Assembly (NCBI GenBank): GCA_949825025.1
Contig: OX463778.1
Span: 19,684,196 to 19,748,195, forward strand
Direction: 5' to 3'
Origin: Siphlonurus alternatus
Lineage: Eukaryota > Arthropoda > Insecta > Ephemeroptera > Siphlonuridae
Length of the DNA: 64,000 nucleotides
Each line of letters opens with the position of its first letter. Position 1 is the stretch's first letter. The position numbers were made by a program, and so were the translations under genes. Below, in pieces: positions 48,701-51,700 of the stretch. The notes beneath the pieces were generated by a model. It saw nothing but the letters and a program-made list of their open reading frames with translations, searched no databases and was not told where the DNA came from.

Positions 48701-51700
48701 TAAGTTAGAGCTCTGTATGCTATGCCTTGACTTGAATATGGTTTAAACTATGCAATTTTTACGTTACTTCATTTGAAAAATCAGTATTTGCAAGCATTTC
48801 TACTATCGTTATTTACGTTAAATTTGCAATAGAGTTTTACATGATGTCTTGCAGATATTAATAAAAATAGAAACGAGGCTAATAAATTGATAAAATTATA
48901 ATTATTTATCATGACAAATCTCTTATATTATACGCATTTTTATGTAGTTTTAGAAAATATGCATCGAAAATAAGTACATGAAATGGAGGTGAGAGCAATG
49001 TAATATAATACAATACACCTCTAAGTTATTCCTAACAGTATATTGTAAGAAAATAACTTGTATAATATAATTTTCTTAACAACTATTGAAGTGATCAAAT
49101 TAATATATTTCAAGTAAGGAGTATACGGTTTATTTACATTATCTAATGCAATATCTTTTCTAATTAGTACAATTATTAGCCTAATGTGTAAACATTTCTG
49201 TCAGCATAACTTCTGTCTAAATAATTACACCATACAAACTGTTTTTTCGCGTACAAGACAGAGTAAAAAAATCTGAGAGGTATAATACACTTATAAATTT
49301 TTATATATGCAAAAGGAATATTTTAATTACAACGAAATTTATTATAAATATAATCTTATTGTTATTAAAAATTTTAATACCTTAATGAAATAGTTTAATA
49401 TTTTTTTTTTCTGCTGAGCCTCCGCATACAGTCAGTAAATAAATAATTATATCCTAAAAATATATTCTATAGTAAACATATATAGAAAATATTATATGAT
49501 GAATAATATAAAACAGAATAATAATTAACATTTTAAATAACCTCGAACAAAAACTTCTCAAAATTGATGAAATTCGTAAAAAAACTTTGTAAAAAAATAA
49601 AATATTATTTTATGAATAACACTAAAAGCTAGATCATACAGTTTAAAATATGTTAAAAATTATTGATTTTCTTATAAACACATTTTTGAAGTATACTTTT
49701 TTAAATTTTGCAAGAAAGAATGTATACATTATGAATGCTCATTCTTAATGAACATTTATTGAAATTACAAATAAACTATTAAAATTGGGTCTAAATACTT
49801 AGAAATAACAAGAAATGTATATATTATTTTACATTAAATTCTTTTTATTAAGTGTATAATTCTACATAAAATATATATTTAAAAAAATGAAGAACAAAAA
49901 GTAAACAGTGTATTTTCATGTACACGAGCATTAAAAATCAACACAATACTGCTGCGATGAAGTCCATTCATAAAAACTTGAAGTTCATTAACATCGAAGG
50001 CATTGTAACACGGAAGAACAAACATTTGATATAATCAAAGTTTCACTTCTCCTCACAGCTTGCGGCGTCTCTCTTGCTTCAAGACATCATGGGGTCACAG
50101 AGAGGTTTTAACAAAAACCGGTTCTTATGTAATTTATTCTGAAAAATGTATAATGTGTATTTTAAATAAAAAAAAATTATTATAAAGAGTATTTTCTTTT
50201 TAATAATCAATAACATCAGTAAATGCTTCATGTATTTTGAATAATTGACAATCTGTAGAAATTTTTTTGTGTTCTAATAAAACATCAGTCTTTTTGTTTA
50301 TATTATAAATTCGATGATTACAATACACACATCTTATATTATATAACACTTTATCATCACAGATGAAACCGTTTTGAGCGATTTTTTTAATATTATATTT
50401 ATCATTCCAAGAATGAAATGTTTTCATACGAACATTACTCTCAAAAATACACGTTTTATCAAAGTTGTCATACACCCAGTCTGCCATTGCAAATGCTTGA
50501 TAGTGTGAACATTTTTCTTTGTTTAATTCGTTACTGTGTTTAATACACTCACTGCCATAATGAGGTGACAATTGATCGTTTTCAGGACAACCAAAATTGT
50601 CCAAATTTAAGACTTGCATATTTAAATCAATATATTTTTTAACATAATTAAAAATCTTTTCGTTGCGAACATAAACAAATCTTATATTTTTTAATCCATC
50701 AAATATTATTGTTCTTAAATTACAATATTCTTCACCAATTAACTGATTATTAGATCCTTTATAATTCCAAGCATTTTGTGGAAAATATACAGGATATCTT
50801 ATACGGAAGTGTGAGCTTGCACTAGTCTGCACACACACTATACTGAGTTCATTAATTATCTCATCGCCTTCTGTATTTTCTTCATAGTTAACGTGTAACA
50901 CGGCAGACGTCATCTCAAGTACTAAGTAAAAAATATTTGAAAGTTCTATATATTTTATTTTTTTTTACTGAATATGTCTTACTGTCCCTGAAAAAGGATA
51001 ATAATCAATTATTTCATCAGAAATTAATAAAACATACATGATAGAATCTGGCTTAAATTTCTCATAGCTCTCGTAAAATAACTTAACATCGACACTTCCT
51101 GTTTTGATGTCTTCAGGCTGCTTATTCATGTCAAGGACAATGAGTGGGAATTTCGTTACAAAATCTGTAAGCGATAGAACAGGCTCCACTTCTTTGTCAG
51201 TGTAGGATGATTTAAAATTACAATAATTATTATACAAAAGGGCTACTTGGTTTGGATACTTAATTAATAAATCCTCATAAGGGTAATATACTCCATTTAG
51301 GTATAATCGTACTGTCTTCATATCAAGCTGATCAAATCTGCAAGCATTTATTTTTGAATTTAATTTTCTATTAACCTGATATGCAATTGCACAATATCTA
51401 GGCTTATGTAAATTTGTTGTAGTTAGTATATTAAAGTTATCAAAACTCTTACTTAAAGATAGTGGTTCTACATGAATGCTCCAAGTTCTAAAGCCTATTT
51501 GTATTTTTGTATTATTTTCAACTAACTTTAAAAGCTTTATTTTATTACTATCACTTACAGTTACATGTTGCATTTTCCATTCTATTCTCTGTATTATTAA
51601 TTTAGCACTCTTCACATTACTACCTGTAATATGAAAAACGTCATCATCTGACCGTGCGCGAATTAACACAATTTCGTGTTTACTATTAGCAAAAATCTTT

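What the first reader, a model, noticed from the sequence alone, without database searches (positions are those of the whole stretch)
50200..50913. BIR (inhibitor-of-apoptosis) domain fused to a polinton nuclease-like domain
The exact C-x2-C-x16-H-x6-C spacing with the R..TF..W opening and NGF turn is a BIR signature. The N-terminal half matches a different small polinton protein type. I know of no described polinton protein with this fusion. It suggests an element that manipulates host cell death, as baculoviruses do with IAPs. The missing groove tryptophan argues for a changed ligand.
Basis: partly seen in the sequence, partly recalled or inferred. Interest (0 to 1): 0.9.

Follow-up and report, generated by a model that had tools for sequence, protein, structure and literature searches.

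The report
Virus-like transposon gene with BIR domain
A virus-like transposon in an animal (probably insect) genome carries a gene that joins a nuclease-fold-like module to a BIR domain, the zinc module of cell-death inhibitors; the same joined protein exists in a second sequence, but its BIR has lost residues of the usual peptide-binding pocket, so it probably grips another host partner.

Summary
The 237-aa ORF at 50200-50913(-) ends in a BIR domain (Pfam PF00653, 43.1 bits, cut-off 22.9) with C-x2-C-x16-H-x6-C spacing. It lies 51 nt behind the capsid gene of a 12,668-bp polinton-type element (47224-59891) with ~455-nt terminal inverted repeats and a CCCATT target duplication. The first half looks RNase H-like on weak models; its best viral fold matches include ichnovirus proteins and a stand-alone adintovirus protein. 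It shares zinc-residue spacing with Maelstrom but no profile match. Three groove positions (Trp, acid, Trp in three solved BIRs) are Ile, Thr, Ile in both sequences. I favour a host-response modulator with an unusual BIR ligand over a classical caspase inhibitor; function is inferred. My paper searches showed no such fusion, but the main adintovirus paper is not held. This copy has no intact DNA polymerase.

The parts
50200..50913 (-). Fusion gene, 237 aa: RNase H-like half + BIR domain
   Evidence: Open ATG-TAA frame; full-length 70% identical relative P0002
50467..50913 (-). N-terminal half, residues 1-149: predicted RNase H-like fold, possible zinc site (C123, H126, C135, with E22 or H35), no DEDD set seen
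   Evidence: AF2 low confidence; Foldseek hits; conserved residues; coordinates
50509..50547 (-). C-x2-H-x8-C cluster (C123, H126, C135), same spacing as BmMael C290/H293/C302
   Evidence: 1132 of 200000 shuffles of the N-half reach it; PMC4408791 passages
50239..50430 (-). BIR domain, residues 162-225; zinc ligands C195, C198, H215, C222; groove positions I205, T209, I218
   Evidence: Pfam PF00653 43.1 bits, alignments to solved BIRs; coordinates
50133..50138 (-). AATAAA, possible poly(A) signal 3' of the stop (weak: AT-rich DNA)
   Evidence: sequence
50965..52200 (-). Major capsid protein, double jelly-roll, 51 nt upstream of the fusion gene
   Evidence: Pfam PF21738 217.1 bits; 10 relatives P0003-P0012
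52197..53018 (-). Probable minor capsid (penton-like) protein, named by position and recall only
   Evidence: no family hit above cut-off
53018..53386 (-). Adenain/Ulp1-type protease frame; no ATG in frame
   Evidence: Peptidase_C48 17.6 bits, below cut-off 20.7
53370..53858 (-). Adenovirus pX-like core protein
   Evidence: Adeno_PX 19.8 bits, below cut-off 25
54916..55572 (+). C2H2 zinc-finger ORF, 218 aa; by recall resembles the N-terminal end of a polinton pPolB, cut short
   Evidence: pPolB identity not tested
55697..56626 (-). Retrovirus-type integrase with candidate catalytic D36, D97, E131
   Evidence: rve 49.9 bits; motif positions
58165..58851 (-). Genome-packaging ATPase (A32-like)
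   Evidence: Pox_A32 27.9 bits, cut-off 22.8
47224..47677 (+). Left terminal inverted repeat (454 nt aligned)
59431..59891 (-). Right terminal inverted repeat (461 nt aligned; 410 of 469 alignment columns identical)
47218..47223 (.). Target-site duplication CCCATT, left copy
59892..59897 (.). Target-site duplication CCCATT, right copy

Best explanation
It is an accessory protein of a virus-like polinton lineage: an RNase H-like, probably zinc-held and probably non-catalytic domain (resembling in fold small stand-alone proteins of an adintovirus and of ichnoviruses) fused to a single BIR domain. SHOWN: the ORF, the BIR homology, the changed groove positions, conservation of the whole fusion in a second sequence, position next to the capsid gene. 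INFERRED: it is made when the element is expressed as a virus and works as a binding protein, not an enzyme; the BIR docks on a host signalling or cell-death protein by a surface other than the AVPI-type groove (as type I BIRs do with TRAF/TAB1), and the first half supplies a second protein or nucleic-acid contact. Net effect: it blunts the host cell's death or immune response to the element.
For: BIR above curated cut-off in both sequences (43.1 and 44.7 bits against 22.9). Full-length gap-free conservation, 167 of 237 identical, both halves alike (104 of 149; BIR 45 of 64), close to the capsid's 310 of 411. I205/T209/I218 identical in both sequences where the three solved BIRs printed have W/acid/W. 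In the oyster scheme (PMC8917759, passages) I at position 80 and S at 81 are type I-like; type I BIRs bind TRAF1/2 and TAB1 (same passages). N-half: best viral fold hit AsIV-cont00151-ORF1, E 5.4e-5, prob 1.00; a 166-aa protein of Drosophila-associated adintovirus 2, prob 0.91, E 0.054; RNase H-like chains among PDB hits.
Confidence: 0.45

Rival explanations
1. Virion or packaging protein: the gene lies in the capsid cluster directly behind the major capsid gene, and the BIR is only a stable zinc module for protein contacts inside the particle.
For: 51-nt gap to the capsid gene, same strand; probable conservation of that linkage; capsid and fusion protein evolve at similar rates (75.4% and 70.5% identity).
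Against: Absent from polinton core gene lists as I recall them. The searches with the fusion protein found no partner for P0004 or the more distant capsid relatives, as expected of an accessory gene, although those searches reach close relatives only.
Confidence: 0.25
2. Classical viral IAP: the BIR inhibits caspases or sequesters Smac/Reaper/Grim-type antagonists, as in baculoviruses.
For: Best solved relative by sequence is a DIAP1 BIR (18.8 bits, E 0.012); all four zinc ligands, the GF pair and E214-H215 kept in both sequences.
Against: Trp/acid/Trp of the peptide groove are Ile/Thr/Ile in both sequences; only one BIR, no RING in the ORF.
Confidence: 0.12
3. Counter-silencing protein: the N-half is a Maelstrom-like domain that binds RNA or piRNA-pathway proteins and shields the element from piRNA silencing; the BIR targets or stabilises it.
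For: C-x2-H-x8-C with upstream E22 and H35 resembles the MAEL residue set (BmMael zinc by E137, C290, H293, C302; PMC4408791 and PMC2628886, passages; residues conserved). Maelstrom chains among Foldseek hits: 9nhc_F, 5af0 only.
Against: Pfam Maelstrom PF13017 not reported at E up to 10 for the whole protein, P0002 or the N-half while it hit a MAEL control at 136.8 bits; hhalign probability 0.45%; no Maelstrom in the 50 VIA rows; C-x2-H-x8-C arises in 1132 of 200000 shuffles of the N-half.
Confidence: 0.12
4. Passive relic: the copy has no intact polymerase, so the ORF is an un-decayed leftover without present function.
For: The longest open frame in the 12,668-bp element is 412 codons, the capsid, too short for a pPolB; the protease frame lacks an ATG.
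Against: The ORF is intact and its lineage has kept the whole fusion in a second sequence. This rival concerns the copy, not the gene family.
Confidence: 0.06

Closest known systems
BIR domain (Pfam PF00653); nearest solved: DIAP1 BIR, then BIRC8, survivin
   Same: Domain length, zinc ligand spacing, R..TF..W opening, GF pair; above curated score in both sequences
   Different: Peptide-groove Trp/acid/Trp replaced by Ile/Thr/Ile; single BIR at the C-terminus of an unrelated domain; no RING
Drosophila-associated adintovirus 2 uncharacterized protein A0A7D4ZHK6 (166 aa) and ichnovirus proteins AsIV-cont00151-ORF1 (166 aa), GfV-D6-ORF1 (131 aa)
   Same: Fold of the N-half by Foldseek, similar size (131-166 aa against the 155 modelled)
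   Different: 14-16% identity, weak query model; by length they cannot hold both halves. Wallace et al. 2021 (PMC8363768, passages) already mention a possible very distant homolog of an ichnovirus gene in adintovirus 1; whether it is the same gene was not tested
MAEL domain of Maelstrom (PF13017; 5af0, 4ybg)
   Same: Predicted RNase H-like order, no DEDD set seen, C-x2-H-x8-C spacing with upstream E and H
   Different: No profile-level sequence match; BIR attached
Polinton/Maverick and adintovirus elements
   Same: Terminal inverted repeats, 6-bp target duplication, rve integrase, double jelly-roll capsid, A32-type ATPase
   Different: No intact pPolB in this copy; BIR fusion gene not found in the paper searches made
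Burro giant LTR retrotransposons of planarians (PMC6431247, passages)
   Same: A transposable element whose ORF holds a BIR domain
   Different: Unrelated retroelement class, BIR within a huge polyprotein

Membership tests
BIR domain PF00653 | Score above curated cut-off | tested here: met
   43.1 and 44.7 bits against 22.9
BIR domain PF00653 | Zinc ligands C-x2-C-x16-H-x6(8)-C | tested here: met
   C195, C198, H215, C222, conserved in P0002
BIR domain PF00653 | BIR fold in a structural model | tested here: inconclusive
   AF2 with two sequences gave pLDDT about 25 in this part
Caspase-type (type II groove) IAP | Groove Trp, acidic residue and Trp/His | tested here: not met
   I205, T209, I218 in both sequences; the role of the first Trp and the acid is recalled, that of the second from PMC3760131 passages
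Caspase-type (type II groove) IAP | Caspase or antagonist binding | not testable with these tools
   needs bench work
MAEL domain PF13017 | Pfam profile match | tested here: not met
   not reported at E up to 10; control hit at 136.8 bits
MAEL domain PF13017 | E...C-x2-H-x8-C zinc set | tested here: inconclusive
   C-x2-H-x8-C spacing present and conserved; E22 assigned by strand order of a weak model
MAEL domain PF13017 | RNase H-like fold with MAEL topology | tested here: inconclusive
   9nhc_F and 5af0 among other chains; not in VIA rows
Polinton/Maverick element | Terminal inverted repeats and 6-bp target duplication | tested here: met
   410 of 469 columns identical; CCCATT both sides
Polinton/Maverick element | rve integrase, DJR capsid, A32-like ATPase | tested here: met
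   49.9, 217.1 and 27.9 bits, each above its cut-off
Polinton/Maverick element | Cysteine protease (Ulp1/adenain type) | tested here: inconclusive
   17.6 bits, below cut-off; no ATG
Polinton/Maverick element | Intact protein-primed polymerase B | tested here: not met
   longest frame in 47224-59891 is the 412-codon capsid frame; the copy is filed only as a polymerase-less derivative

The most novel reading that the evidence does not exclude
A capsid-encoding transposon lineage has built a two-headed host-defence antagonist: a Maelstrom-like dead nuclease domain that interferes with RNA silencing of the element, welded to a groove-altered BIR that blocks a cell-death or immune signal, one protein covering both arms of the host response.
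Probability: 0.1. Interest if true: 0.88.

Novelty: new variant of a known kind. Interest (0 to 1): 0.62.

Why it matters
Polintons encode capsids, yet how they live as viruses is barely known. An accessory gene with a domain of the cell-death regulators, kept in two diverged sequences and probably beside the capsid gene in both, suggests that the lineage meets host defences as an infecting virus would. It gives a concrete protein to test, and hints that polinton, adintovirus and ichnovirus accessory proteins share a module.

Tried and rejected
Staphylokinase similarity of residues 97-187 (phmmer 22.1 bits, E 0.00072; PHROG 22 bits, E 0.0002; 16 phage records at E 0.6-0.7): rejected as chance although it scores above the solved BIRs. 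It straddles both halves, the best score falls from 22.1 to 19.8 when P0002 is added to the profile, while the best DIAP1 chain rises from 16.4 to 17.4 (the BIRC8 chain drops off the list), and P0002 alone does not match that PHROG.

Zinc-ribbon/NuBaID alternative for the C-half: zf-C3HC 16.5 bits, below its cut-off of 22.2, BIR 46.8. The RNA polymerase subunit P match (16.9 bits, cut-off 72) covers 13 residues only; rejected.

N9 as the counterpart of BmMael N124: dropped, Ser in P0002. My notebook's first idea that E122 is the zinc Glu was replaced by E22, since the MAEL Glu sits on strand 2.

Searches without relatives: viral contigs with P0001, the capsid, the ATPase, a DIAP1 BIR, the capsid alignment and A1 and with a BIR DNA pattern; genome contigs (prokaryotes) with A1; phage records with the capsid. 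These collections seem to hold few animal viruses, so the negatives say little. P0004's contig (3,460 bp) may or may not carry a fusion gene; none was found.

Structure: two AF2 jobs with two-row alignments gave mean pLDDT 37.7 and 46.1. Foldseek lists also hold unrelated folds (MutS, YeaZ, tyrosine phosphatase, ribosome-bound Balon). No Maelstrom among the 50 VIA rows.

Literature: searches (40 of 1,001 papers listed in the last) showed no polinton or adintovirus paper with a BIR/IAP gene in the titles listed and the passages I opened (in PMC11089739 'IAP' means intracisternal particle). I opened passages only, no whole paper. The adintovirus paper of Starrett et al. is not held, so priority is not established.

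Full report
What is there. The minus-strand ORF 50200-50913 runs from ATG to TAA and encodes 237 aa. In 200 order-1 Markov copies of the element the longest ATG ORF was 132 aa. Residues 162-225 match Pfam BIR PF00653 at 43.1 bits, E 6.1e-11, over profile positions 1-69 of 70, with a curated cut-off of 22.9. Cut out alone, the C-terminal 88 residues score 46.8 bits, and the related zinc family zf-C3HC only 16.5, below its cut-off. Sequence comparison of these 88 residues with solved structures is weak but puts BIR domains first: chains named Apoptosis 1 inhibitor (DIAP1; 18.8 bits, E 0.012), BIRC8, survivin. With the whole protein as query, staphylokinase chains score higher (22.1 bits); I reject that as chance for the reasons under Tried and rejected.

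The element. 47224-59891 (12,668 bp) is bounded by terminal inverted repeats, 454 and 461 nt aligned with 410 of 469 columns identical and the outer 148 nt free of differences, with AGT...ACT ends and the 6-bp duplication CCCATT on both sides. It holds a double jelly-roll capsid gene (217.1 bits), rve integrase (49.9 bits, candidate D36/D97/E131), A32-like ATPase (27.9 bits), and sub-threshold matches to Ulp1-type protease (17.6) and adenovirus pX (19.8). The longest open frame is the capsid's, 412 codons, so there is no intact protein-primed polymerase B; a 218-aa C2H2 ORF on the plus strand looks to me, by recall only, like the start of one. So this copy is a polymerase-less derivative of a polinton. 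Flanking plus-strand ORFs carry a UBR1-like winged helix (29.9 bits, cut-off 27) and a weak, sub-threshold RING match, so the insertion seems to lie inside a UBR-type host gene.

Is the fusion real biology? In about 5.8 billion proteins two searches (191 and 714 candidates scored) returned one relative, P0002, also 237 aa, 70% identical from residue 1 to 237 without gaps, with its own BIR match of 44.7 bits. These searches need shared exact words, so they reach close relatives only. Identity is 104 of 149 in the first part, 45 of 64 in the BIR, and 310 of 411 for the capsid pair. P0002 comes from one contig of 3,816 bp, and the closest capsid relative P0003 (75%) also from one contig of 3,816 bp under the same source label. 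I infer, but could not read, that both lie on one contig. A chance merger in a decaying copy would not look like this.

Maelstrom lead. Chen et al. (PMC4408791, passages) report zinc in Bombyx Maelstrom held by E137, C290, H293, C302, loss of most of the DEDD set, no nuclease activity, and ssRNA binding; Zhang et al. (PMC2628886, passages) list E-H-H-C-H-C as the family's residues. Here E22, H35, C123, H126 and C135 stand in a comparable order with the same C-x2-H-x8-C spacing and are kept in P0002; the second His has no counterpart that I can see. Against it: no profile match (control 136.8 bits), hhalign 0.45%, and the spacing alone appears in 1132 of 200,000 shuffles of the N-half. I keep it as a lead, not a family assignment.

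The groove. In the tool's alignments, ungapped over this stretch, the positions that are W/D/W in DIAP1, W/E/W in BIRC8 and W/D/W in survivin are I205/T209/I218 here and in P0002. That the first Trp and the acid line the groove is recalled; the second Trp is described in PMC3760131 (passages). In the oyster classification (PMC8917759, passages) a hydrophobic residue at position 80 and Ser at 81 are type I-like, E at 76 type II-like, so the domain is mixed. Type I BIRs bind TRAF1/2 and TAB1 rather than caspases (same passages). XIAP BIR2 binds peptides with His for the second Trp. Loss of all three positions makes classical antagonist or caspase binding unlikely, not impossible.

Mechanism. I think the protein is an accessory host-response modulator that binds rather than cuts: BIR to a host signalling or cell-death protein by a non-canonical surface, first half to a second partner. 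Shown are anatomy, homology and conservation; the partner, the timing of expression and the effect are inferred. A virion protein is the main rival because of the place beside the capsid gene.

Novelty. BIR domains in mobile elements have a precedent in planarian Burro elements (PMC6431247, passages). My searches showed no polinton or adintovirus paper with a BIR or IAP gene, but they saw listings and passages only and the library lacks the main adintovirus paper. I rate it a new variant of a known kind.

Noticed in passing
window 47224-59891: The element keeps capsid, integrase and ATPase genes but has no frame longer than 412 codons, so no intact polymerase B; it would need help from another copy to replicate.
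   Followed up: partly
window 54916-55572 (+): 218-aa ORF with one C2H2 finger on the opposite strand; by recall its end resembles the start of polinton pPolB, as if the rest were deleted. Not tested.
   Followed up: no
window 53988-54287 and 54336-54635: 300-nt direct repeat, 98% identical, starts 348 nt apart, between the pX-like gene and the C2H2 ORF.
   Followed up: no
window 56623-57270 (-): Protein with four stretches matching the phage T7 tail-fibre N-terminal domain (PF03906, 59.5 bits, cut-off 25.2) and several phage tail PHROGs: a phage-fibre-like repeat protein in an animal polinton.
   Followed up: partly
window 53018-53386 (-): Protease frame has no ATG; its listed start overlaps the end of the pX-like gene.
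   Followed up: partly
window 45081-45416 and 61327-61932 (+): UBR1-like winged helix and weak RING-like ORFs on both sides, so the element appears inserted within a UBR-type ubiquitin ligase gene, perhaps an intron.
   Followed up: partly
window 47525-50199: About 2.7 kb between the left repeat and the BIR gene hold no open frame over 69 codons; possibly a decayed accessory region.
   Followed up: partly
window 46675-47102 and 44015-44404: Two palindromic foldback sequences (arms of 172 and 107 nt), about 0.1 and 2.8 kb to the left of the element.
   Followed up: no
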